39,508 nucleotides of DNA, taken from IMG/VR virus record IMGVR_UViG_3300006805_000062, positions 1-39,508 of that record; one strand, written 5' to 3'. The notes beneath the pieces are model-generated. The model worked only from the letters and a program-made list of their open reading frames with translations. It did not search any database and was not told where the DNA came from. Source of the stretch: a virus. A program made the position numbers and the translations under genes. The stretch's first letter is position 1, and each line of letters starts with the position of its first letter. This document shows, in pieces, positions 9,099 through 39,508 of this stretch.

Positions 9099-11098
9099 TG
9101 CCGGCCTGGCTGACCGTTGACTTCGAGACGCGCGGCGTCGTCAACCTGCCCAAGGTGGGCGCGCATCGGTACGCGGAGGACCCCCACACCGGCATCTGGT
9201 GCCTCGCCTACGCCGTCGATGACGGCCCGGTGGATCTCTGGACACCGGACCAGCCGATGCCAGAGATCTTCCGCGATCTGCCCGCGACGACATTCCTCCG
9301 AGCCTGGAATGCACAATTCGAGGCCACGATCTGGCGAGTGCTTCTGACAGAGCGCCTGGGCTGGCCGGCTATTCGACCGGAGCAGTGGGTCTGCGCGGCG
9401 GCCCTGGGCGCCCGGGCCGGACTCCCCCGGAAGCTCGAGGACGCCGCGCGAGTACTCCAGGTGCTGCACCAGAAGGACCTCGAGGGTCATCGGCTCATGC
9501 TTAAGCTCTGCCAGCCGAAAGCCTGGACGCCGGAGGGGGAGCCGCTTTGGCACACCGAGCCCGCCCTCCTGGAGCGGATGTACGCCTACTGCCGCCAGGA
9601 TGTGGAGACGGAACGCGCCGTGTTCCGGGCCCTCCCGGCCGTGGGACACCCCCTCGAGCGCCGGGCCTGGCTGCTGGACCAAGAGATCAACCGGCGGGGC
9701 CTGTGCTTGGACCGGGCGCTTGTCACTGGCGCACTTGCGGTGGCCCGCCCTGCCGTGGCAGCGCTCAACGCCGCGATCAGCGAGGCAACCGAAGGCCGGG
9801 TGACGAAGGTGACCCAGGTACAACGCCTCGTGAAATGGTGTGGCGAGCGAGATTTTCCTGTCACCACGCTGGATAAGGCCGCGCTGCGTGACCATCTCGC
9901 CCCAGACACGATCCTGCCGCCCGAGGTGCGGACGGCCCTCGCTATCCGGAGCCAGGGCGCCAAGAGTTCGATCGCCAAGCTCGAGACGATGGAGCGGGTT
10001 GTCGGCGAGGATGGCCGGGTGCGGGACCTCCTGCTCTACTACGGGGCCGGCACAGGCCGCTGGGCGGGCCGGCTGGTGCAGCCCCAGAACTTCCCGCGGG
10101 GCACAGTTAAGGTCACGGAGGAGGACTACGCGCTGCTGCAGCACGGCGATCTCGCGCTCCTTGAGGCCCTGCTGCCCTCGGACAAGCCCGTGATGGAACT
10201 GCTGGCCTCCATGCTCCGGGGCTGCTTCGTGGCCCAGCCGGGCCATGAGTTCACAACCGCGGATTTCGCGGCCATCGAGGCACGGGTCTTGGCGTGGCTG
10301 GCGGGGGCCAAGCGGCTCCTCGCGCTCTTCCACCAGGGCCTCTCCCCCTACCCGCCGATGGGCGAGCCGATCTTCGGGCATCCGACGCCCAAGGACGGCA
10401 ACCCCTTCGAGTACCAGGTGAGCAAGAATACCGTGCTGGGCTGCGGGTACCAGATGGGGTGGCAACGATTCCAGGAACAGGCCTGGGAACAGACCGGCTT
10501 GCGCCTCGAGGATGATCTCTGCCACCGCGCCGTGGCGGCCTACCGGGAGACCCACTGGCAGATTCCGGATCTCTGGAAGGAACTCAACCGGGTCTGTCAG
10601 GCCGCGGTCTCGTCCGGCTCGACGCACTGGCTGCCTGCAGCGGACGGGAAGCTCGCCTTTGCCTGCGACGGGGCCTGGCTCCGGATGCGGTTGCCCTCCG
10701 GACGGTCGCTGTGGTATCCTTTCCCGAAGATGAGCCAGCGGCGGGCGCCGTGGAAAGACCCCCGGACCGGCCAACTGGCGTTGGTGCCCTGTGTGACGGT
10801 GGCAGGCGTCGATCCCGTCACGAAGCGATGGACCCGTAGTGCCCTCTACGGCGGGCTCCTGACTGAGAATGCGGTGCAGGCCATTGCCCGGGATCTCATG
10901 GTCGAAAGCATGTTCCGAGTCGAAGCTGCGGGGTACCACGTGCTGCTGACGGTGCATGATGAGATCGTCACCGAAGCGCCCGCCGGCCACGGCTCTGTCG
11001 ACGAGTTCTGCCACCTGATGGCAACGCCGCCCACGTGGGCGGCAGACTGCCCGATCGCCGCGGAAGGCTGGCGCGGCCGGAGGTATCGCAAGGGATGA
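9098..11098 (+). CDS. Family A DNA polymerase with 3'-5' exonuclease
   Basis: 666 residues. The N-terminal proofreading exonuclease shows Exo I VDFETRG (Asp8, Glu10), Exo II WNAQFE (Asn71, with Glu75 where Asp is usual) and Exo III YCRQD (Tyr164, Asp168). The polymerase domain shows motif A TADFAAIEAR (Asp389), a motif B-like segment VSKNTVLGCGYQMG and motif C TVHDEI (Asp621), so both catalytic aspartates are present. No 5' nuclease domain is seen, as in most phage polymerases of this family. It replicates the phage genome with the primase-helicase encoded next. Start by TGATG overlap; stop in an ATGA overlap. Confidence 0.93.
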   Translation: MPAWLTVDFETRGVVNLPKVGAHRYAEDPHTGIWCLAYAVDDGPVDLWTPDQPMPEIFRDLPATTFLRAWNAQFEATIWRVLLTERLGWPAIRPEQWVCAAALGARAGLPRKLEDAARVLQVLHQKDLEGHRLMLKLCQPKAWTPEGEPLWHTEPALLERMYAYCRQDVETERAVFRALPAVGHPLERRAWLLDQEINRRGLCLDRALVTGALAVARPAVAALNAAISEATEGRVTKVTQVQRLVKWCGERDFPVTTLDKAALRDHLAPDTILPPEVRTALAIRSQGAKSSIAKLETMERVVGEDGRVRDLLLYYGAGTGRWAGRLVQPQNFPRGTVKVTEEDYALLQHGDLALLEALLPSDKPVMELLASMLRGCFVAQPGHEFTTADFAAIEARVLAWLAGAKRLLALFHQGLSPYPPMGEPIFGHPTPKDGNPFEYQVSKNTVLGCGYQMGWQRFQEQAWEQTGLRLEDDLCHRAVAAYRETHWQIPDLWKELNRVCQAAVSSGSTHWLPAADGKLAFACDGAWLRMRLPSGRSLWYPFPKMSQRRAPWKDPRTGQLALVPCVTVAGVDPVTKRWTRSALYGGLLTENAVQAIARDLMVESMFRVEAAGYHVLLTVHDEIVTEAPAGHGSVDEFCHLMATPPTWAADCPIAAEGWRGRRYRKG

Positions 11099-13578
11099 GC
11101 TTCGCGACGTGGATCCAGGCGGGCTTCCCCACCGTCATCCCCGTGGTGCCGCCCGGGGCGACCTTCTCCGCGTTCTCCAAGATGGAGCCCAGCCAGGCCG
11201 GGAAGAGTCCCGGTCGGCGGAACGCGCAGGGCCTCTGGACTGGGCTCAAGGATTGGACCACGGTCGCCGCTACCCCGAACGCCGTGGCCGAGTGGGAGAC
11301 CTGGGGTGCCAACATCGGACTCCGGACGCGCGATTTTCCGGCCGTGGACATCGACGTGACGGACGCCGCCTTGGCGGAAGAGATCCAATTGCTGGCCGTC
11401 GCCCATCTCGGCGACGCGCCGACCCGGACAGGCCGCGCGCCCAAGCGCACGCTCCTCTACCGCGCTGACACGCCGCTCAAGCGCCAGCGCCTCTGGCTCA
11501 CCCGGGACGGGACGACCCACCTCGTCGAAGTGCTCGGCGACGGCCAGCAGTTTGTGGTCGAGGGCATCCACCCCGGCACCCGGAAGCCATTCACCTGGGA
11601 AAACGGCGGGCTGCCCATCCGGGCGGATGCCCTGTTCTCCCTCACGCCGGAGCGCGTCACCGCCTTCCTCGAGGCCGCGGCGGCCCGCGCGACGGCCCTG
11701 GGGTATCAAGTGCGCCGGGAGGGGGCCAAAGCCGAACGGGCCGTCGTCGCGCAGACCGCCCTCCACGGAACGCGTGAGGCCGTCACCGCAGCCGTGAGCC
11801 GCCTCCCGAATACGTCCGCCCTCTTCCCCACCCGGGAGGACTACCTCAAGGTGGGCTACGCCATCAAGGCGGCCCTTCCTGCCCACCCCGGCGAGGCGTT
11901 CGATCTCTGGTGGGCTTGGTGCCAGCGATGGGAGGGCAATGCGAAGGGCGGCAATGATCTCGAGCGCGCCCAGGCGGACTGGAGCCGGATGGCGCCCCCC
12001 TACGCCATCGGTGCTCCGTGGCTCTACGAACTAGCTCGCGATCACGGCTTCCACGACGCCCAGGAGGAATTCACCGATGACCTTCCATGCGCTGGCCCCG
12101 AATTTCCCGCTGCAGCAGAGCGTGTGGTGGAAGCACCACAGCAGCCACCCACCCGGGCCGAGGAAGTGCAAGCGGATACACACCAGTCCGGGGCCGTGGC
12201 CTTCTCCGATGCCTGGCTCGCCCACCGCTTCCTCGCCCGCCACGGTGCCCGAGTGCGCTACTGCGAACGCCTCGGCGGATGGATGCGCTGGGACGGGCAT
12301 CGCTGGGCCGGCGACGACACCGGCTTGACGACGTACTGGGCTGGCCGCGTGCTCCGCGCAGCCAGCCAGACGGCGGTCATCACCATCGAAGATCCGACGG
12401 AGGCACGCAGCACCGCCAAATTTTGTTGCTCGGAGAAGGCCCGGCGGAACGTCATGCAGTACGCGGCCGTGGACCCCGCGGTTGCGGTGAGCGTCGACGC
12501 CTTCGACACTGATCCCTGGGCTCTCAATACCCCAGCCGGCATCGTGAATCTCCGAACCGGAGCCCTCGAGCCGGCGGATGCCGCCCGGCTCTTCACACGC
12601 TGCACCGCCGTCGCGCCAGCGCCCATCCCGACGCCGCGCTGGACGGCCTTCCTGGCGGAGGCCACACATGGCGACCCCGATCTCGCTCGGTACCTACAAA
12701 GGCTGGCAGGTTACGCTCTTACAGGATCTACTCGCGAACACGTTCTCGCTTTCCTGTGGGGCCCAGGTGGTAACGGTAAGGGTGTATTCCTCAACACGCT
12801 GGTTAGACTCGCGGGAAGCTATGCGAGCGTTGCAGCGATGGACACATTTACCTCGTCTCGCTTCGATCGCCACCCGACTGAGCTTGCCGCGCTCTTTGGT
12901 GCTCGCCTTGTTACTGCCCAGGAGACTCAGGAAGGGCGCTCCTGGGATGAGGCGAAGGTCAAGAGCATAACCGGCGGGGACCCCATCACCGCGCGCTACA
13001 TGCGGCAGGACTTCTTCACGTTCCTTCCGCAGTTCAAGCTCCTCTTCGCCGGCAACCACAAGCCGCACATCGGGAATCTCGACGACGCCATGCGGCGCCG
13101 GTTCCACCTGGTCCCCTTCACCGTCAAGCCCCGGCAAGTCGACCCGGATCTGGCGGAGAAGCTCACCGCCGAATGGCCGGGGATCCTCCAATGGGCCCTC
13201 GAGGGCTGCCTGGCGTGGCAGCGGGACGGCCTCCAGCCCCCGGCTGCGGTGCGGGAGGCGACGGAGGCCTACTTCGCGGATGAAGACCCGCTCGGCCGGT
13301 GGCTCGAGGAGCGCACCGCCCCCGGGCCCGGTACCGAGACGCGGGACCTCTGGGCCGACTGGCAGATCTGGTGCGGGGAGCAGAACGAGCGCCCGGGGAC
13401 CCAGCGGGGATTCATCCAGGCGCTCCTCATCCGTAATTTCCAGAAGTGGCGCCACCCGACCACGCGGCGTCACGGGCTCGCCGGCCTCCGGCTGGCCCCC
13501 GACCACGAATTCAGCGCCCCGGGCGATGCCGCCCTGGTGGAGGCGCTCATGCTCACCCCAACTCCGGAGGTGATATGA
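11095..13578 (+). CDS. Primase-polymerase / SF3 (D5-like) helicase
   Basis: 827 residues from the ATGA overlap at 11095, chosen over an in-frame ATG 60 bases upstream inside the polymerase gene. The N-terminal third resembles bifunctional primase-polymerase domains: AVDIDV (Asp85, Asp87) and VLGDGQQFVVEGIHPGT. A PriCT-like linker follows. The C-terminal half is a D5-type SF3 helicase with Walker A GPGGNGKG (556-563), LVTAQETQ as motif B, LLFAGNHKP as motif C and AMRRRF as the arginine finger. It probably opens the origin and primes synthesis. Codons 534-627 use far more T-ending codons than the rest, which hints at recombination. Confidence 0.9.
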   Translation: MSFATWIQAGFPTVIPVVPPGATFSAFSKMEPSQAGKSPGRRNAQGLWTGLKDWTTVAATPNAVAEWETWGANIGLRTRDFPAVDIDVTDAALAEEIQLLAVAHLGDAPTRTGRAPKRTLLYRADTPLKRQRLWLTRDGTTHLVEVLGDGQQFVVEGIHPGTRKPFTWENGGLPIRADALFSLTPERVTAFLEAAAARATALGYQVRREGAKAERAVVAQTALHGTREAVTAAVSRLPNTSALFPTREDYLKVGYAIKAALPAHPGEAFDLWWAWCQRWEGNAKGGNDLERAQADWSRMAPPYAIGAPWLYELARDHGFHDAQEEFTDDLPCAGPEFPAAAERVVEAPQQPPTRAEEVQADTHQSGAVAFSDAWLAHRFLARHGARVRYCERLGGWMRWDGHRWAGDDTGLTTYWAGRVLRAASQTAVITIEDPTEARSTAKFCCSEKARRNVMQYAAVDPAVAVSVDAFDTDPWALNTPAGIVNLRTGALEPADAARLFTRCTAVAPAPIPTPRWTAFLAEATHGDPDLARYLQRLAGYALTGSTREHVLAFLWGPGGNGKGVFLNTLVRLAGSYASVAAMDTFTSSRFDRHPTELAALFGARLVTAQETQEGRSWDEAKVKSITGGDPITARYMRQDFFTFLPQFKLLFAGNHKPHIGNLDDAMRRRFHLVPFTVKPRQVDPDLAEKLTAEWPGILQWALEGCLAWQRDGLQPPAAVREATEAYFADEDPLGRWLEERTAPGPGTETRDLWADWQIWCGEQNERPGTQRGFIQALLIRNFQKWRHPTTRRHGLAGLRLAPDHEFSAPGDAALVEALMLTPTPEVI

Positions 13579-13601
13579 CCGATTGCCCGCAGTGGTAGGA
13601 C

Positions 13602-13642
13602 GCTCCGCGCCCCGGCGCCCTGCCGGGTCGACGCCACGGAGC
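13602..13642. other. Nested inverted repeat between convergent operons
   Basis: GCTCCG (13602-13607) pairs with CGGAGC (13637-13642), and inside it CCCGGC (13611-13616) pairs with GCCGGG (13622-13627). It lies in the 104-base gap between two operons that face each other and may aid termination or block read-through. Confidence 0.4.
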
Positions 13643-13651
13643 GAGGTCCAG

Positions 13652-13683
13652 CAACGCCAGCCGCCCGGCTGGCGTTGTTGCAT
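13652..13683 (+). terminator. Terminator hairpin between convergent operons
   Basis: A perfect 11-bp stem, CAACGCCAGCC (13652-13662) with GGCTGGCGTTG (13667-13677), and a GCCC loop. On the + strand it is followed by TTGCATT, a weak U-rich tail. It ends the rightward replication operon and may work in both directions. Confidence 0.7.
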
Positions 13684-14090
13684 TAGAGAACGAGGCGGCA
13701 GTCCTGGAAGATCGGCGGATGGGGAACCCGGTGGGAGCCGGGGAGGTGGTAGAACTGGTGCAGGAACTCGTGGGCCCAGACCCGGACCTCCCCCACATAG
13801 CTCTGGCCGACGTAGACAGCCCCCCAGCGGGCCCCCCAGGCCGCGATCGGGCCCTCGGAGGCCGGGAGGGAGCCCTCCGGGGCCTGGAAGAGCCTGAGCG
13901 CCCCGTAGGCGGTCTGTTGGGGGAGGGCAAAACGACCGCCGCAGGCTCGAGCGAGCACCGCGGCGGAATCGGTGACCGGATTTCGGTCCAGGCGCACGGC
14001 GCCGGAGGGCTCGAACGGACTCGAGCACCCCAGTCCCAGGAGCCCTACCAGGTATCCCGCATCTCGAACTGATCGCTGCAGTCGTCGCAT
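13683..14090 (-). CDS. Lipoprotein-like HExxH putative metallopeptidase
   Basis: 135 residues. The start at 14090 follows a GGTGAG-type site and gives a plausible signal peptide: basic n-region (RRLQRSVR), hydrophobic core (YLVGLLGLG), then Cys22 in LGLGC, an imperfect lipobox. Near the C-terminus WAHEFLHQFYHLPGSH has HExxH (His107, Glu108, His111) with further His115 and His120, as in zinc peptidases. Two more Cys (50, 131) could form a disulfide outside the cytoplasm. It would sit at the host envelope. The last gene of the leftward operon; its start overlaps the upstream gene by 46 bases. Family is not identified and activity is unproven. Confidence 0.6.
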   Translation of the reverse strand: MRRLQRSVRDAGYLVGLLGLGCSSPFEPSGAVRLDRNPVTDSAAVLARACGGRFALPQQTAYGALRLFQAPEGSLPASEGPIAAWGARWGAVYVGQSYVGEVRVWAHEFLHQFYHLPGSHRVPHPPIFQDCRLVL

Positions 14091-14242
14091 ACACTCACCC
14101 CGGCGTCCTGCTCCTCCTCGGTGTAGGCCCGGCCGCAGTAGGGGCAGTGGAGAGGGCTCGCGCCCGGGCTTGCTCCCGGAGCTTCCATCGCTGGATCCGC
14201 GCCGCATGGGGCCTGGTGGCCTTCCCGTTCCGTGTCCGGCAT
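14045..14242 (-). CDS. Small zinc-ribbon protein
   Basis: 65 residues from the ATG at 14242, preceded by GGAGGG at 5 bases; an upstream in-frame ATG (14266) overlaps the previous gene and has no clear site. Cys33, Cys36, Cys52 and Cys55 (CPYC and CDDC) form a zinc-ribbon pair. The N-terminal half is flexible (Gly/Pro/Ala-rich). It follows the stop of the upstream gene after one base. Role unknown; a protein- or nucleic acid-binding adaptor is possible. Confidence 0.6.
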   Translation of the reverse strand: MPDTEREGHQAPCGADPAMEAPGASPGASPLHCPYCGRAYTEEEQDAGVSVCDDCSDQFEMRDTW

Positions 14243-14243
14243 G

Positions 14244-14723
14244 TCATCCCTCCGTAGGCGAGGCACCGGGGGCAGAACTCGCCCCGAACGGGGTGGTGGG
14301 CGCCGGCGTAGTCGTGCATGGAATCGGCTCCTCCGCCGACCCCTCCGGCGGAGCGGTCGGCACCTCGGGTGGGGCCGGGGTCTCGTCCCCCGGTTCCTCC
14401 CCGTCTGATCCCGGTAGCGCCAAAATGCTCACCAGAAAGGCCCGGGTCAAGGTGACCTGGAACCGAGCCCAGCCCCGTTCATCCAGGCTCCAGGTGCCCG
14501 GCCGGCAGGCGATCTCGAGGTGCCGTGGTTTCACCTCCGGCCCGGTCAGCATGTTGACCCAGAACTGGACGAGCGCCGGCGTCAGCCGGTCGAGGTCCTC
14601 GAGCAGCGCCGCATCCAGCCCGGAGGGGATGTGGAAGGTCTGGCCCCCCGGACCCCGGCGCGCGGCCTGCACGAAGGCCCGGACGGCCTGCTTACTCCAG
14701 GCCCAGAGTGCCCGCCGGCTCAT
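14244..14723 (-). CDS. Hypothetical protein with Pro-rich tail
   Basis: 159 residues. The N-terminal 110 residues look folded and mostly helical (MSRRALWAWSKQAVRAFVQA, then DLDRLTPALVQFWVNMLTG). The last 50 residues are a Pro/Thr/Glu-rich disordered tail. I do not recognise the family. The ATGA overlap with the DUF6378 gene upstream means the two are probably translated together, and a shared function is plausible. Confidence 0.55.
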   Translation of the reverse strand: MSRRALWAWSKQAVRAFVQAARRGPGGQTFHIPSGLDAALLEDLDRLTPALVQFWVNMLTGPEVKPRHLEIACRPGTWSLDERGWARFQVTLTRAFLVSILALPGSDGEEPGDETPAPPEVPTAPPEGSAEEPIPCTTTPAPTTPFGASSAPGASPTEG

Positions 14724-15178
14724 CGCGCCGTATCCCGGTAGTGCCGCTCGAGAACCTCGAGCAGGCGCGCGTCCCGTTCCTGCCTTGTCAGACTTCCCCC
14801 GTCCCCCGTGTTCGCGATTTCGAGCCCCGGCTCCGGCTGGGGGGAGGGAGCCAAAATCAGATCCGGGTCCAGAACTAGGACAGGGGCCCGGACATTACTC
14901 CCGGCGTCCATCATCTTCTCGATGCAGCGAAGATACCCGCACATGTCGACGAGGTTGTCCCGCTTCGGCTGGTGCAGTTCCCGCGCCAGCTTGAGCGCCA
15001 CCATCATGAGCGCGACCTGTTCGAGCGAGACCGGGGACCCAAGGATCACCCCCCAGAGTCGCGCCGTGGCCTCGAAGTTCTTCGACGGATGGCCGTACGT
15101 CTGCTCCCGGTCCCCGTCGACGATGCGACTGGCTTCGGTCAGGATGGTCTCGATTGCCTTGGTGGGGATGGCGGACAT
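14720..15178 (-). CDS. DUF6378-like phage protein
   Basis: 152 residues. The segment GDREQTYGHPSKNFEATARL, followed by LWGVILG, VALMMVALKLARELH and KRDNLVDMCGYLRC, matches the pattern I know as DUF6378, common in phage genomes. The helical layout with conserved acidic and His positions recalls MazG-like nucleotide pyrophosphohydrolases, but no activity is established for the family. The C-terminal 50 residues are variable. The neighbouring HD nucleotidase suggests a role in the nucleotide pool. The start lies 2 bases after the upstream stop. Confidence 0.7.
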   Translation of the reverse strand: MSAIPTKAIETILTEASRIVDGDREQTYGHPSKNFEATARLWGVILGSPVSLEQVALMMVALKLARELHQPKRDNLVDMCGYLRCIEKMMDAGSNVRAPVLVLDPDLILAPSPQPEPGLEIANTGDGGSLTRQERDARLLEVLERHYRDTAR

Positions 15179-15180
15179 GA

Positions 15181-20024: not shown

Positions 20025-20504
20025 TTAGCGGCCCTCCGGCGTGGACAGGGCGCCCGGCATGGTGTAGTAATAGGTTTTGAGGTGCGGCAGGTAGGTCCAT
20101 CCGTCGGCCTCCGCCGGTACGGTCGGGGAGGCATGCAGGCGCCCCAACGCCTGCCCGCCGCGCCCCTCCCCTGTGTTCACAAGGAAGCATCGGCGCTCCC
20201 CGTTGACCATGAAAACGGTCTCTTGCCGGTACTTCCGGGCCAGCATAAGCGCCGTCCCGAGGAGATCGCCGTAACTGCCGGTGCCGGTCGCGCCGTACAG
20301 CACGACGGCGGGCTCCCGCTTGCCCTGATACATCCCTTTCCCGCGCCGCACTTCATACCCGGTACGCCGCGCGTCTTGCTCAAGGTCGCGCGTGACCCGC
20401 TCGGCTTCCGCAGCCGACATGCCGGGACGGGCGGCAGACAAGATGGCAACCGGCGGCACGTCGGCCGGGCGTGTGTTGTGGAAACTGCCGGGATAGACTC
20501 GCAT
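20025..20504 (-). CDS. DUF3293-like accessory protein
   Basis: 159 residues from the ATG at 20504. A much longer in-frame ORF exists, but its N-terminal part is a TSPGP repeat that is only a frame-shifted shadow of the pentapeptide gene. The chosen ATG carries the same 17-base leader as the pentapeptide gene. The pattern VAILSAARPGMSAAEAERVT, then DLEQDARRTGYEVRRGKGMY, then LLGTALMLARKYRQETVFM, is like DUF3293 proteins of phages and bacteria, whose function is unknown. It is likely expressed early with the pentapeptide protein. Confidence 0.5.
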   Translation of the reverse strand: MRVYPGSFHNTRPADVPPVAILSAARPGMSAAEAERVTRDLEQDARRTGYEVRRGKGMYQGKREPAVVLYGATGTGSYGDLLGTALMLARKYRQETVFMVNGERRCFLVNTGEGRGGQALGRLHASPTVPAEADGWTYLPHLKTYYYTMPGALSTPEGR

Positions 20505-20505
20505 A

Positions 20506-20522
20506 GTGTGGCCCTTTCGGCT
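20506..20522 (-). promoter_or_regulatory. Duplicated 17-base translation leader, copy 2
   Basis: On the - strand AGCCGAAAGGGCCACAC lies one base before the ATG at 20504, and its first bases fall in the stop codon of the pentapeptide gene. The AAAGGG core can serve as ribosome binding site. An identical 17-base copy precedes the pentapeptide start (20951-20967). Confidence 0.7.
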
Positions 20523-20949
20523 AGCGGGTGGTGTCGGTGAGGTTGGCCCCGCGAAGGTCGGCCCCGGTGAGGTCGGCCCTGACGAGGTTTGCCCAGGCGA
20601 GGTCGGCCCTGGCGAGGTTTGCCCAGGCGAGGTCGGCCCTGGCGAGGTTGGCCCCGGTGAGGTTGGCCCCGCGAAGGTCGGCCCCGGTGAGGTCGGCCTC
20701 GGTGAGGTTGGCCCCGGCGAGGTCGGCCCTGGCGAGGTTTGCCCAGGCGAGGTCGGCCCTGGCGAGGTCGGCCTTGGCGAGGTCGGCCCCGGTGAGGTCG
20801 GCCCCGGTGAGGTCGGCCCCGGCGAGGTCGGCCCCGGCGAGGTCGGCCCGGGTGAGGTCGGCCCGGGTGAGGTCGGCCCCGGTGAGGTCGGCCGGTCGGC
20901 CTTCTCGACTGGCTGCGGCGATTTCGGCAAGCGCGGCTTCGCGGTTCAT
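20521..20949 (-). CDS. Pentapeptide-repeat protein (24 repeats)
   Basis: 142 residues: a 19-residue helical N-terminus (MNREAALAEIAAASREGRP), then 24 uninterrupted A(D/N)Lxx repeats and a three-residue end. Such repeats fold as a right-handed quadrilateral beta-helix; in MfpA and Qnr proteins this rod imitates DNA and acts on gyrase. A gyrase-modulating or anti-restriction role is therefore possible, though many pentapeptide proteins have no known role. It is the first gene left of the iteron region, so it is probably among the earliest expressed. The repeats are very uniform, which suggests recent expansion. Confidence 0.85.
   Translation of the reverse strand: MNREAALAEIAAASREGRPADLTGADLTRADLTRADLAGADLAGADLTGADLTGADLAKADLARADLAWANLARADLAGANLTEADLTGADLRGANLTGANLARADLAWANLARADLAWANLVRADLTGADLRGANLTDTTR
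20530..20892. repeat. 15-bp tandem repeats encoding pentapeptides
   Basis: About 24 degenerate 15-bp units (for example GAGGTCGGCCCCGGT and close variants) in direct tandem. They code for the pentapeptide array on the - strand and create repeat-like false ORFs in other frames. Confidence 0.85.
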
Positions 20950-21016: not shown

Positions 21017-21057
21017 CGAACCCATCCGGACCCATTGCGAACCCATCGCGAACCCAT
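21017..21057 (+). repeat. Left outer iteron cluster (4 copies)
   Basis: CGAACCCAT at 21017, 21038 and 21049 and the variant CGGACCCAT at 21027. Start-to-start spacing is 10, 11 and 11 bp, one per helical turn, so all sites face the same side of DNA. Confidence 0.85.
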
Positions 21058-21103
21058 TGAATGACGCTGTAAGTTACGGCAGGACGATAGGTTAGACGAT
21101 TCG

Positions 21104-21120
21104 CGAACCCATCGAACCCT
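21104..21120 (+). repeat. Left inner iteron pair
   Basis: CGAACCCAT at 21104-21112 followed directly by CGAACCCT (21113-21120), a copy that diverges at its end. Spacing is 9 bp. Confidence 0.75.
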
Positions 21121-21136
21121 GCGGGGGGTATGATCC

Positions 21137-21177
21137 GCCATAAGGGAATAATATGTGGTAATTATTCTACATATGGC
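21137..21177. other. AT-rich palindrome in the iteron centre
   Basis: GCCATA (21137-21142) pairs with TATGGC (21172-21177) and GAATAAT (21146-21152) with ATTATTC (21161-21167), with an 8-base loop. It is the most AT-rich stretch for kilobases and could be a DNA-unwinding element, a cruciform or an operator. Confidence 0.6.
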
Positions 21178-21190
21178 AGGATTGTTACAA
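21161..21190 (-). promoter_or_regulatory. Possible leftward promoter
   Basis: On the - strand TTGTAA (21185-21190) and AATAAT (21161-21166) are 18 bp apart; the -10 box matches five of six. It would transcribe the leftward operon with a leader of about 200 bases running through the left iteron arm. The -35 box overlaps the palindrome TTGTTACAA (21182-21190). Confidence 0.4.
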
Positions 21191-21231
21191 CACATCCCTA
21201 CGCGTGTGCGCGCTTATGCCGGATAGTAGAG

Positions 21232-21249
21232 ATGGGTTCGATGGGTTCG
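21232..21249 (-). repeat. Right inner iteron pair
   Basis: ATGGGTTCG, the reverse complement of the left iteron, at 21232-21240 and 21241-21249, 9 bp apart. It mirrors the left inner pair about 21176-21177. Confidence 0.8.
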
Positions 21250-21295
21250 GGGCGGGGTTAAGTGATGGCCCGGTGCGGTGTTGCAGCGTTGGGAG

Positions 21296-21337
21296 ATGGG
21301 TTCGCGATGGGTTCGGGATGGTTCCGCAATGGGTTCG
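21296..21337 (-). repeat. Right outer iteron cluster (4 copies)
   Basis: ATGGGTTCG at 21296, 21307 and 21329 and the variant ATGGTTCCG at 21318, each 11 bp apart. It mirrors the left outer cluster. Confidence 0.85.
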
Positions 21338-21749: not shown

Positions 21750-22034
21750 ATGCCCGACCAGGATCCGATTGACCGCAGCCTGCTCACCACCGACCCGCCG
21801 GCCCGCCGCAAGGCCCCGGCGAAGGAGCCCCCGATGCGGAAGCTCAAGCCGAAGCGCCTTCCCGCCGCCCGGATCGACCGGGAGGACCCGGTGAAGGTGC
21901 CCCGGAAGCGGCTCAAGGGCGCCCCGCGCCCCGGCCGGGGTCTGCGGGAAGCGGTGGGGGAACCGAATCACCCAATGCCCAAGAGCGGATCGCTCCGGCA
22001 GATCGCCCCCTTCTTCGAGAAGTTCTGCCGGTAA
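21750..22034 (+). CDS. Small basic protein preceding the terminase
   Basis: 94 residues, starting at the ATG with GGAGG at 21741-21745. It is rich in Lys, Arg and Pro and probably largely disordered (ARRKAPAKEPPMRKLKPKRL, then RKRLKGAPRPGRGL). It ends in a TAATG overlap with the small terminase gene. Its place at the head of the late operon and its charge suggest DNA or terminase binding during packaging, or simply a translational leader gene. No family recognised. Confidence 0.55.
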   Translation: MPDQDPIDRSLLTTDPPARRKAPAKEPPMRKLKPKRLPAARIDREDPVKVPRKRLKGAPRPGRGLREAVGEPNHPMPKSGSLRQIAPFFEKFCR

Positions 22035-22618
22035 TGCCGAGCGGCATCTACCCCCGCACCGAGAAAGGCAAGGCCTGGGTGGCGTCGATGCCGATCATCC
22101 GCAACCAGATCGACAAGCTGAAAGCCCTCCCGGAGGACGCGCGGGAGGCGATGCTGGAGGCGTTCGCGACGGGGACGCGGGTGAAGAAGATCCTGGCCGC
22201 GCAGGGGGTCGGCTGCCGGGCGTTCTACAAGTGGCTCGAGGAGGATCCGGTCATGCGGGCGGCCTGGGAAGAGATGAAGGCCTACCGGGCCCGTTCCTAC
22301 GCCGACGACGCCCAGGAAGCCGTGGAATCGGTCGAGGGCGTGATCCTGTCGACCGAAGAGATCCAGTTGCGGAAGCTCCGGGCCGACATCAAGCTCCGGC
22401 TGGCCGCGGTGACGAATCCCCGGGAGTTCGGCAAGTCGCCGAAGACGGTGCTCCAGGTCGAGCATCTCCACCTGACGGCCCTCGAGCGGATCAACCAGGA
22501 GGACACGGCCCGGCGGATGCAGGTCCTCGAGGCGACCGGCGCGGCCCACGCGCTGCCGCCGGCGACCCCGGCCGAGGTCGCGGACACGGCCCTGGCCGAC
22601 GCCCTGGCGGGTTGCTAG
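22034..22618 (+). CDS. terS: Terminase small subunit
   Basis: 194 residues. After a basic N-terminus the segment AMLEAFATGTRVKKILAAQG, then VGCRAFYKWLEEDP, is a helix-turn-helix typical of small terminases that recognise the packaging site. A helical middle part (ADIKLRLAAVTNPREFGKSP) could form the oligomer ring, and the C-terminal tail would contact the large subunit. Start by TAATG overlap. It directly precedes the large terminase gene, as is usual. Assignment rests on this context plus the HTH and the typical NPREFG-like segment. Confidence 0.8.
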   Translation: MPSGIYPRTEKGKAWVASMPIIRNQIDKLKALPEDAREAMLEAFATGTRVKKILAAQGVGCRAFYKWLEEDPVMRAAWEEMKAYRARSYADDAQEAVESVEGVILSTEEIQLRKLRADIKLRLAAVTNPREFGKSPKTVLQVEHLHLTALERINQEDTARRMQVLEATGAAHALPPATPAEVADTALADALAGC

Positions 22619-22621
22619 GCG

Positions 22622-24091
22622 ATGGCGGCGCCCGCGCTCGATCTCGTCACCCCGCCGGCGACCGAACGGTTCACGGTCGAGACGTTCCTCGCCTGGCAGC
22701 GGCGCTACCGGAACGACCCGGATCGCTTCATCCGGGAGATGTGGGCCGTCGAGCCCGACACCTGGCAGACGGAAGCCGCGAACAAACTCGGCCGGGACGA
22801 GCAGCGGCGCATCGCCATTCCCTCCGGCCACGGCGTCGGGAAGACGGCGCTGGCGGCCTGGCTGTCCCTCTGGTTCTTCCTCACCCGATTCCCGGTCAAG
22901 GTCATCCTGACCGCCCCGTCCTCGGCGACCCTCGAGGACGGCCTCTTCGCCGAGATCAAGATGTGGGTGTCGCGGCTGCCGGGCGCGGTGCGCTCCCTCG
23001 TCGAGGCGACCTCGGACCGCGTGGTGCTCAAGAGTGCGCCGGACCGGGCCTTCATCTCGGCGCGAACCGCCCGGGCGGAGAAGCCGGACGCGCTCCAGGG
23101 CGTCCACGCCGACTACGTGCTCCTCATCGTCGACGAGGCGAGCGGCGTGCCGGAGGCGGTCTTCGAGGCGAGCCAGGGCTCGATGTCCGGGCCGGCGCGG
23201 TTCATGCTCCTCCTCGGCAATCCGGTGCGGGCGCAAGGGTACTTCTACGAGGCGATCACGAGCGGCAAGACGGCGCTCTGGTGGGTCCGGGAGGTCTCCT
23301 GCTACGAGGCGAAGCGGGCGCCCCAGGAATACATCGACGAGATGGCGGTCCTCTACGGCGAGGAGTCAAACACCTTCCGGGTCCGGGTGCTGGGGAAGCC
23401 GCCGCTCGGCGACGAGGACTCGATCATTCCGCTCGACCTGATTCAGGCGGCCTTCGACCGGGAGGTCACCCTCTCCAGCACCGTGCCGATCGTCTGGGGG
23501 CTCGACGTGGCCCGGCTGGGGAAGAACCAGGCCGCCCTCGCCAAGCGCCAGGGCAACTGGTGCCTCGAGCCGGCGCATCGGTTCAAGAACTGCGACCTCA
23601 TGCAACTCGTCGGGCGGGTCGCGGCGATGCACGACAGCCTGCCCGAGGCCAAGCGGCCGGCGGCGATCTACATCGACGCGATCGGCGAGGGCTCCGGAGT
23701 GGCGGACCGGCTCATTGAACTCGGGCTGCCGGCCGTCCGGATCAACGTCTCCGAGCACAAGGGCCTGACCGACGCCTACTACAACCTCAAGGCGGAACTC
23801 TGGTGGCGGGCGCTGGGCTGGTTCGCGGCGCGCGATTGCCGGTTCCCCCGGGACGACGAACTCGTCAAGGCGCTCTCGTGCGTCAAGATCGACCACCACT
23901 CCTCCGGGAAACTGCTGGTCGAGTCGAAGGACAAGCTCGAGCGGCGCCTGGCGGGCCGGATGCCGCGCATGGACGCCGCGGATGCCTTCGTGCTGACGTT
24001 CGCCGGCGGCGCGGCTGCCGCGCTCTACGGTCGCCGCCAGGCCGGGAAGCGCCGGCCGATCCTCCGCCGCCGGCTGCCGGGGGTTGTGTGA
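22622..24091 (+). CDS. terL: Terminase large subunit
   Basis: 489 residues with all hallmarks of the packaging motor. The ATPase domain has Walker A SGHGVGKT (68-75), Walker B VLLIVDEAS (Asp170, Glu171) and the coupling motif LLLGNP (195-200). The RNase H-like nuclease has its acidic residues in WGLDVAR (Asp294), IYIDAIGEG (Asp351) and RMDAADAF (Asp450, Asp453). It cuts concatemers and pumps DNA into the prohead through the portal. The start lies 3 bases after the TerS stop. Family assignment is secure; packaging type (cos or headful) cannot be told here. Confidence 0.95.
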   Translation: MAAPALDLVTPPATERFTVETFLAWQRRYRNDPDRFIREMWAVEPDTWQTEAANKLGRDEQRRIAIPSGHGVGKTALAAWLSLWFFLTRFPVKVILTAPSSATLEDGLFAEIKMWVSRLPGAVRSLVEATSDRVVLKSAPDRAFISARTARAEKPDALQGVHADYVLLIVDEASGVPEAVFEASQGSMSGPARFMLLLGNPVRAQGYFYEAITSGKTALWWVREVSCYEAKRAPQEYIDEMAVLYGEESNTFRVRVLGKPPLGDEDSIIPLDLIQAAFDREVTLSSTVPIVWGLDVARLGKNQAALAKRQGNWCLEPAHRFKNCDLMQLVGRVAAMHDSLPEAKRPAAIYIDAIGEGSGVADRLIELGLPAVRINVSEHKGLTDAYYNLKAELWWRALGWFAARDCRFPRDDELVKALSCVKIDHHSSGKLLVESKDKLERRLAGRMPRMDAADAFVLTFAGGAAAALYGRRQAGKRRPILRRRLPGVV

Positions 24092-38011: not shown

Positions 38012-38021
38012 GGAGGCAGCC

Positions 38022-39508
38022 ATGACCACTGGAGCCACGGGGGCCACTGGGCCCGTCGGACCGCGGGGACCCCGCGGATTGCAGGGAGCCACGGGCGCCC
38101 GGGGGCTGACCGGGCATACCGGCTCTCCGGGGGCCACGGGCGCACACTACACCGGCGCCACAGGCGTCCAGGGCCCCACCGGAGCCGCAGGCGCCACCGG
38201 GCCGGCAGGACCCACCGGGGCCGGGGTCACGGGCGCCACGGGGGTCCAGGGCGCCACGGGCGTCGCTGGGCCGGCGGGTGCGACCGGAGCCGGGGTGACG
38301 GGTGCGACGGGGGCCACGGGCGTTCAGGGCGCCACCGGCGTCCAGGGCGCGATCGGCACGCCGGGCGCCACCGGAGCCGGGGAGACGGGCGCTACGGGCG
38401 TTCAGGGGGCTACGGGTGCTCAGGGTGCCACCGGGGCCACCGGGGTCGGTGTGACGGGTGCCACGGGGGCCCAGGGCGCCGCTGGGGCCAGCTACAGCGC
38501 GACCTCTTCCTCGAGCATTGCGGTGGGCACGGGGTCGAAGACGTTCAGCGTGGAAACGGGGCGTGCCTACCTGGCGGGGGTCCATCGGGTGCGCGCAGTC
38601 GATGCGGGCGATGCCACCATTTTCCTCGAAGGCTGGGTCACAGCGTACAGCGGTTCGGCGCTGACCATCCTTGTCGATGCGACGGGCGGGGCAGGAACGC
38701 ATGCCTCCTGGGTGCTGGGCCTGGTAGGCGATCTGGGGGCCACGGGGGCGACCGGAGCCGGGGTGACGGGTGCCACAGGCACGCAGGGGCCGACGGGCCC
38801 CGCGGGAGCGACGGGGGCGGGCGTGACGGGGGCGACCGGCGTCGCGGGTCCAGCCGGTGTGACCGGCGCGACGGGTGTGGCGGGGCCTGCAGGAGCCACC
38901 GGAGCCGGAGTGACGGGGGCGACCGGCGTCGCGGGTCCAGCCGGTGTGACCGGCGCGACGGGTGTGGCGGGGCCTGCGGGAGCCACCGGAGCCGGAGTGA
39001 CGGGGGCGACCGGCGTTGCCGGGGCCGCGGGTGCCACGGGCATCCAGGGCGCCACCGGACCCACGGGGGTTTACGGGGGCGCGATCACCATCCCATATAC
39101 CTTCTCCACGACGACGGCGGACGCTGATCCGGGGAGCGGGAATCTGCGCCTCAACAACGCCACCCAGAGCAGCGCCACGGTCATTCGAGCGGACCTGCTG
39201 GCGAGCGATGGCGTGGATTGGTCTTCGGTGCTGGGAACGCTGGCGGGCTCGACCAACACGGTCAAGGGCCATCTCCGGCTCTCGAAGCGAACAGACCCGA
39301 CGGCGTGGTTGCTCTTCACCGTCTCGGCGCTGGCCTCGCCTACCGGGTACAAGAACATCACCGTGACCTGCATCGGGTCGAGCGCAGCGAACCCGTTCGC
39401 GAACGCGGATGCGCTGCTGTTCACCTTCGAGCGCGCGGGCGATGTCGGGTCCGCCGGCGCGGCAGGCGTGACGGGTGCGACCGGCGTCGCGGGCGTGACG
39501 GGTGCGAC
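38022..39508 (+). CDS. Modular collagen-like tail fibre 3 (incomplete at window end)
   Basis: The ATG at 38022 follows GAGGAGG at 38010-38016 and the frame stays open to the window end, giving at least 495 residues. Order: collagen-like block (1-155); a beta-rich module (about 157-238, [20 protein letters not shown], then [16 protein letters not shown]); a second collagen block with repeats of [15 protein letters not shown] (about 239-345); then module (about 347-475), [20 protein letters not shown], then [19 protein letters not shown], a type known from other phage fibres; then collagen again. Likely the receptor-binding fibre. The C-terminal head lies outside the window. Confidence 0.78.

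What the first reader, a model, noticed from the sequence alone, without database searches (positions are those of the whole stretch)
21017..21337. Mirror-symmetric array of twelve phased 9-bp iterons
CGAACCCAT-type sites occur at 21017, 21027, 21038, 21049, 21104 and 21113 on one strand and as reverse complements at 21232, 21241, 21296, 21307, 21318 and 21329. The two arms have the same internal plan (four copies at 10-11 bp spacing, then a pair at 9 bp), and both the outer and inner clusters are centred on 21176-21177. Helical phasing means that a protein could coat one face of each arm. The array sits in the only large non-coding region, between divergent operons. Replication initiator, partition (centromere-like) and master repressor sites all use phased repeats, but a twofold mirror with this plan is not one I know from phages. 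No ParA- or ParM-type gene is in the window, so an origin or switch is favoured.
Basis: partly seen in the sequence, partly recalled or inferred. Interest (0 to 1): 0.82.

Follow-up and report, generated by a model that had tools for sequence, protein, structure and literature searches.

The report
Mirrored iteron origin for phage primase-helicase
The twelve mirrored short repeats are almost certainly the place where this phage starts copying its DNA, read by the tip of its own primase-helicase; the same plan with other letters recurs in related phages, and letters and protein change together.

Summary
The array is real. Nine sites match exactly and three are degenerate (1-2 mismatches); five of six mirror pairs share the axis 21176.5 exactly. 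A second contig carries it.

It is best explained as the replication origin of a phage whose initiator is its own D5/SF3 primase-helicase (11092-13578). Three lines support this. (1) Related primases have mirrored iteron pairs just past their gene: 26 of 74 non-redundant loci within 1 kb, against 2 elsewhere in 734 kb. (2) The window's 6|6 layout recurs in relatives with different iterons: L114 21,11,11,32,9; L034 20,10,12,32,9; window 10,11,11,55,9. (3) Iteron sequence changes together with the recognition helix of the primase's C-terminal winged helix: L135/L141 differ at 6 of 20 helix residues but 9 of 835 elsewhere, and have different iterons.

The kind is known from SaPI/PICI satellites (PMC7581432, PMC6092414). 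New here: its spread in phages, the phased 12-site plan, the helix/iteron covariation, and an alternating purine-pyrimidine tract in the centre of all 29 compact versions. In this window the array lies 7.4 kb from the primase gene. No binding or replication was tested.

The parts
21017..21057 (+). left outer iteron cluster, four sites (21017, 21027, 21038, 21049), spacings 10,11,11; second site degenerate (CGGACCCAT)
21104..21121 (+). left inner iteron pair (21104 exact; 21113 CGAACCCTG, 2 mismatches), spacing 9 bp
   Evidence: 9-bp pairs recur in relatives
21151..21174 (.). AT-rich imperfect palindrome ATATGTGGTAATTATTCTACATAT in the centre; the centre 21122-21231 is 53% AT against 32% for the window; proposed melting region
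   Evidence: sequence; AT; other wide arrays carry AAGTAACAGTGT..ACACTGTTACTT here
21199..21213 (.). alternating purine-pyrimidine tract TACGCGTGTGCGCGC; the second contig L004 is 2 bp longer exactly here
   Evidence: equivalent tract in all 29 compact origins
21232..21249 (-). right inner iteron pair (21232, 21241), spacing 9 bp
21296..21337 (-). right outer iteron cluster, four sites (21296, 21307, 21318 with 2 mismatches, 21329), spacings 11,11,11
11092..13578 (+). D5-type (SF3) primase-helicase, proposed origin-binding initiator; PriCT_2, D5_N and DUF5906 domains
   Evidence: AlphaFold model of residues coded by 12199-13575 matches AsfvPrimPol and SaPI5 primase-helicase
13288..13488 (+). 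C-terminal winged-helix domain of the primase-helicase (model residues 364-430); recognition helix at 13402-13431
   Evidence: the equivalent residues co-vary with iteron sequence in relatives
22034..24091 (+). terminase small and large subunit genes next to the origin; the order primase - origin - terminase is kept in G005 and G007

Best explanation
The array is the phage's replication origin. The C-terminal winged helix of its own D5/SF3 primase-helicase binds the 9-bp iterons. Because the two arms point at each other, two assemblies (probably two hexamers) form facing the AT-rich centre. They melt it and start two opposite forks, and the fused primase domain lays the first primers. Shown by sequence: the array, its conserved plan, its association with this primase type, and the recognition-helix/iteron covariation in relatives. 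Inferred: binding in this phage, two hexamers, melting in the centre, bidirectional start.
For: (1) Mirrored iteron pairs lie 28-500 bp past the related primase gene in phi105, BPP-1, Acinetobacter 4316, AcaML1, Pan4, GMA4 and environmental contigs; 26 of 74 non-redundant loci near the primase, 2 clusters elsewhere in 734 kb; about 0.9 expected from shuffles of the first set. (2) The 6|6 phased plan recurs with other iterons: L114, L126, L129, L135, L141, L034; outer-to-inner distance 32, 43/44 or 54/55, i.e. whole helical turns. (3) Residue K at the start of the recognition helix goes with CTGACGG and R with CTGACGC: 80 of 84 rows agree, at least 4 independent switches, none opposed. Near-identical primases with different iterons differ mainly in the recognition helix: L135/L141 6/20 vs 9/835, p 3e-7; L128/L129 7/20 vs 24/811, p 3e-6; L126/L123 5/20 vs 25/810, p 5e-4. 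(4) The AlphaFold model (pLDDT 91.6) has a C-terminal winged helix and matches the SaPI5 primase-helicase 7ola/7om0. (5) SaPI Rep and the homologue Cch2 bind iterons with the C-terminal domain (PMC7581432); a cloned PICI pri-rep-ori was tested for plasmid maintenance in E. coli (PMC6092414). (6) The centre is 53% AT against 32%.
Against: The array is 7.4 kb from the primase gene, not directly behind it. 48 of 74 non-redundant loci show no strict array within 1 kb, including the window's closest primase relatives L107-L112, though whole contigs G002 and G005 have arrays farther away. GC-skew support is weak. The covariation was seen in relatives, not in the window's own lineage; 4 independent switches give sign-test p = 0.125. 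L122 has nine left-arm sites rather than six. No binding data.
Confidence: 0.86

Rival explanations
1. It is an origin, but what is recognised is a DNA stem-loop formed by the inverted arms, as proposed for plasmid pRN1 and for Bordetella phage BIP-1.
For: PMC4234260 shows that a ~100-nt stem-loop 3' of the pRN1 rep gene is needed and proposes the same for BIP-1. The window's outer-inner spacers show some complementarity: score 20 of 46 against 14.4 in shuffles.
Against: The sites within each arm are direct repeats of one another, which a stem does not require. Most spacer bases are not complementary. Iteron letters follow recognition-helix residues. In BPP-1, described as nearly identical to BIP-1, the arms consist of TTGCCTCG iterons.
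Confidence: 0.05
2. It is an operator region: a repressor or activator coats the two arms and controls the divergent promoters.
For: It lies between divergent genes; weak sigma-70-like matches in the centre; HTH proteins are encoded.
Against: In relatives the array is not tied to divergent promoters but to the primase 3' end and the primase recognition helix.
Confidence: 0.05
3. It is the packaging (pac/cos) site recognised by the small terminase subunit encoded just downstream.
For: The terminase small subunit gene starts 0.7 kb downstream.
Against: phi105 has its cos ends 5.4 kb from its array; AcaML1's array is 8 kb from its small terminase gene; a mirror-symmetric signal gives packaging no direction.
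Confidence: 0.02
4. It is an attachment site, telomere-resolution site or partition centromere.
For: Arm-type repeats around a dyad occur in all of these (general knowledge).
Against: No integrase, protelomerase or ParA-like gene was found among the ORFs searched. Annotated attP sites of phi105 and BPP-1 lie far from their arrays.
Confidence: 0.02

Closest known systems
PICI/SaPI replication origins with Pri-Rep initiators (SaPI5, EcCICFT073)
   Same: Self-loading primase-helicase of the same fold (7ola/7om0); [quoted passage not shown] C-terminal domain of the initiator reads the iterons (PMC7581432).
   Different: Here in a tailed-phage genome with its own polymerase and structural genes; 12 phased sites in a 6|6 mirror; the origin is 7.4 kb from the gene.
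Bordetella phage BPP-1/BIP-1 and Bacillus phage phi105 primase loci
   Same: Homologous primase; mirrored iteron doublets with 9-bp spacing around an AT-rich, alternating centre beyond the primase gene.
   Different: Compact 2|2 arrays close to the primase. For BIP-1 the published reading is a stem-loop without iterons (PMC4234260).
Crenarchaeal plasmid pRN1 origin
   Same: AEP primase, SF3 helicase and winged helix in one protein; origin 3' of its gene (PMC4234260).
   Different: Reported as a stem-loop without iterons.
Phage P4 ori and alpha protein
   Same: Primase-helicase whose winged helix binds repeats at the origin (stated in PMC4234260).
   Different: The alpha primase domain is of the bacterial Toprim type. 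Details of P4 ori were not compared here.

Membership tests
PICI/SaPI-type Pri-Rep origin | initiator is a fused primase-SF3 helicase related to SaPI5 Pri-Rep | tested here: met
   D5_N, PriCT_2; phmmer 7ola E 7.7e-7; Foldseek 7ola E 9e-16
[quoted passage not shown]
   6|6 sites; centre 53% AT vs 32%
PICI/SaPI-type Pri-Rep origin | origin immediately 3' of the initiator gene | tested here: not met
   7.4 kb away in the window; 28-500 bp in most relatives with an array, 0.7-4.4 kb in G007, G005, G002
PICI/SaPI-type Pri-Rep origin | initiator C-terminal domain binds the iterons | tested here: inconclusive
   winged helix in the model; covariation in relatives; no binding assay
PICI/SaPI-type Pri-Rep origin | initiator plus origin replicate a plasmid | not testable with these tools
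   needs cloning
PICI (satellite element) | small element without its own virion genes | tested here: not met
   portal, major head protein and terminase are present: a phage, not a satellite
pRN1/BIP-1 stem-loop origin | long stem-loop instead of iterons | tested here: not met
   direct repeats in each arm; spacers mostly not complementary
Phage packaging site (cos/pac) | virion DNA ends at the site | not testable with these tools
   no read data; in phi105 the array is not at cos

The most novel reading that the evidence does not exclude
The six sites in each arm are a counted docking template: one iteron per subunit of one primase-helicase hexamer, so the mirrored 12-site array seats a head-to-head double hexamer whose geometry (whole-turn spacing, 9-bp inner pair) is under selection while the letters are free to switch. 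Layouts differ (4+2 in L034, L114, L135; 3+3 in G005) but six per arm recurs.
Probability: 0.18. Interest if true: 0.8.

Novelty: new variant of a known kind. Interest (0 to 1): 0.64.

Why it matters
[quoted passage not shown] These data indicate instead a broad class of phage origins read through a recognition helix, with natural specificity switches that suggest a protein-DNA code to test. How SF3 primase-helicases are seated in opposite directions at an origin becomes testable on a 320-bp DNA with counted sites.

Tried and rejected
DNA search of the array against annotated phages: no match. Pattern search of viral contigs for CGAACCCAT pairs returned the second contig of this phage; the other hits showed no such mirror array of this iteron. 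L005 (TerL 60%) has no such array in its fragment. Strict arrays were not found near the primase of Streptomyces, Arthrobacter, Microbacterium, Lactobacillus or Streptococcus phages tried; a looser setting suggested one in mycobacteriophage Belladonna and satellite Javan612, not pursued. A wider search for the VapE-type primase of L034 found only its own contig. GC skew per gene: not significant. Telomere and tyrosine-recombinase attP readings, suggested by the mirrored arms and central dyad, were dropped for lack of such genes and because the dyad centre (21162.5) is 14 bp off the array axis.

Full report
The observation. The window is an IMG/VR virus record of 39,508 bases. Mirror pairs share the axis 21176.5 except the outermost (21177.0). 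Shuffled sequence never gives anything like it. A second, near-identical contig (L004/L079) keeps the whole array; its centre is 2 bp longer, within the alternating tract.

The genome. It is a tailed phage with terminase, portal, scaffold, major head protein and tail genes to the right, and helicase, exonuclease, Gp2.5-like protein, resolvase, DNA polymerase and a D5-type primase-helicase on the left. The array lies between a minus-strand module that starts with a pentapeptide-repeat gene (20524-20949) and the ORF/terminase operon at 21750. Closest named primases include Acidithiobacillus phage AcaML1, Acinetobacter phage 4316, Bordetella phage BPP-1 and Bacillus phage phi105.

First clue. Among loci fetched with the terminase, L034 showed the same layout with a quite different iteron, CCCCAACCT: spacings 20,10,12,32,9 | 9,32,11,11,20. 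The gene directly before it is a primase-helicase, there of the VapE type.

Association with the primase. The DNA behind the primase gene of phi105, BPP-1, Acinetobacter 4316 and AcaML1 holds pairs of direct repeats facing their mirror image across a short centre. A fixed detector (two copies 8-13 bp apart facing two inverted copies, at most two mismatches in all) found such arrays in window, L034, L083-L085, L088, L089-L092, L099 and L103. In each there was one place only, 28-500 bp past the primase except in the window; about 0.9 false hits were expected over the set. In a larger survey, 82 of 250 loci with enough downstream sequence had one, with 33 different 8-mers. After removing near-duplicates, 26 of 74 loci had one within 1 kb of the primase end and only 2 clusters lay elsewhere in 734 kb, a more than 100-fold enrichment.

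Two layouts. Compact arrays have two or three sites per arm at 9-bp spacing and a centre of 51-82 bp. All 29 non-redundant compact arrays have an alternating purine-pyrimidine tract of at least 10 nt (up to 28) near the midpoint (mean position 0.46, sd 0.09); windows of equal size elsewhere in the same DNA rarely have one as long. In AT-rich phages it reads TATATATATA, in GC-rich ones CGCGCGCG, so alternation rather than AT content is the constant. Wide arrays, the window's kind, have an outer cluster at 20-21,11,11 or 10,11,11 and an inner pair at 9 bp. Outer-to-inner distances are 32, 43/44 or 54/55 bp, steps of one helical turn. Examples are L114, L126, L129, L135, L141, G005 and L034. The window combines the wide plan with a 15-nt alternating tract, placed off-centre (0.77 of the gap). 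L122 has nine left-arm sites, so six per arm is common but not universal.

Who reads the iterons. The AlphaFold model of the window primase's C-terminal half (mean pLDDT 91.6) ends in a winged helix: helices 364-372, 381-394 and 402-411, then two strands. Aligned over 121 loci, the first residues of the third helix follow the iteron: Q-K-RF goes with CTGACGG, Q-R-RF with CTGACGC. On a tree built without that domain, 63 R/C and 17 K/G rows agree and 4 rows from distant groups do not; at least four independent switches are supported and none goes the other way, though four pairs give p = 0.125. In the wide class, KFN..R goes with GTGCACGG/GCCGGGTT and KFT/KFS..K with GGGAC-type iterons. Pairs of near-identical primases with different iterons concentrate their differences in the 20-residue segment: L135/L141 6/20 vs 9/835 (p 3e-7), L128/L129 7/20 vs 24/811 (p 3e-6), L126/L123 5/20 vs 25/810 (p 5e-4). 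Pairs with the same or similar iterons show no excess. L126 and L123 keep nearly the same central DNA although most of their iterons changed. This comparative evidence points to the primase-helicase rather than a repressor or the terminase.

Position. In G007 the order is primase, array 0.7 kb on, terminase 4.4 kb further. In G005 the array is 1.5 kb behind the primase and before the terminase. In G002 a more complex array of CTGAAGCA-type sites lies between them. The window keeps the order primase - array - terminase with a longer insert. phi105's cos and attP and BPP-1's attP lie elsewhere, which speaks against packaging or attachment.

Mechanism (inferred). Each arm collects primase-helicase subunits on the duplex; opposite orientation sets two rings facing each other; the AT-rich centre opens and the fused primase starts both strands. 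SaPI Rep is described as apparently binding its iterons as two hexamers (PMC7581432). Whether the alternating tract serves as a melting, Z-forming or priming element is open. GC skew changes sign here (cumulative minimum near 20 kb), but gene direction changes too; at fourfold sites of plus-strand genes it is -0.054 left and +0.105 right, not significant gene by gene.

What is known. PICIs of Gram-positive and Gram-negative bacteria have two iteron sets around an AT-rich region, called unique to them (PMC6092414). SCCmec Cch2 and SaPI Rep bind iterons through the C-terminal domain (PMC7581432). For pRN1 and phage BIP-1 a stem-loop was proposed and no iterons were found at the origin (PMC4234260); the BPP-1 sequence, described there as nearly identical to BIP-1, shows that the stem arms are mirrored iteron doublets. 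Paper searches for alternating purine-pyrimidine or Z-DNA tracts at such origins returned nothing relevant in the library held, which covers only part of the literature. Hence: new variant of a known kind.

Noticed in passing
window 20524-20949 (-): Pentapeptide-repeat protein (A-D-L-x-x, Pfam E 7e-42) coded by 15-bp tandem repeats; the repeat number differs in the second contig L004. Such proteins can mimic DNA.
   Followed up: partly
window 20025-20522 (-): S-adenosylmethionine lyase family protein, a known type of phage anti-restriction enzyme.
   Followed up: partly
window 38020-39508 and start: The contig ends inside a collagen-like G-x-x repeat tail gene, so the record is probably broken there by assembly and the genome is incomplete.
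   Followed up: no
L113, L084, L087, L138, L198, L249 and other compact origins: Long alternating purine-pyrimidine tracts (20-28 nt) at the midpoint between iteron pairs, CG- or TA-based according to genome composition.
   Followed up: yes
L347 19000-19480 (contig of L108): Complex array of CTGAAGCA-type sites with two nested mirrors between primase and terminase in the window's near relative.
   Followed up: partly
window 13579-15180: About 1.6 kb between the primase and the minus-strand module without a convincing gene.
   Followed up: no
L034 795-2861: A VapE-type primase-helicase precedes the same 6|6 layout, so the plan is not confined to D5-type initiators.
   Followed up: partly
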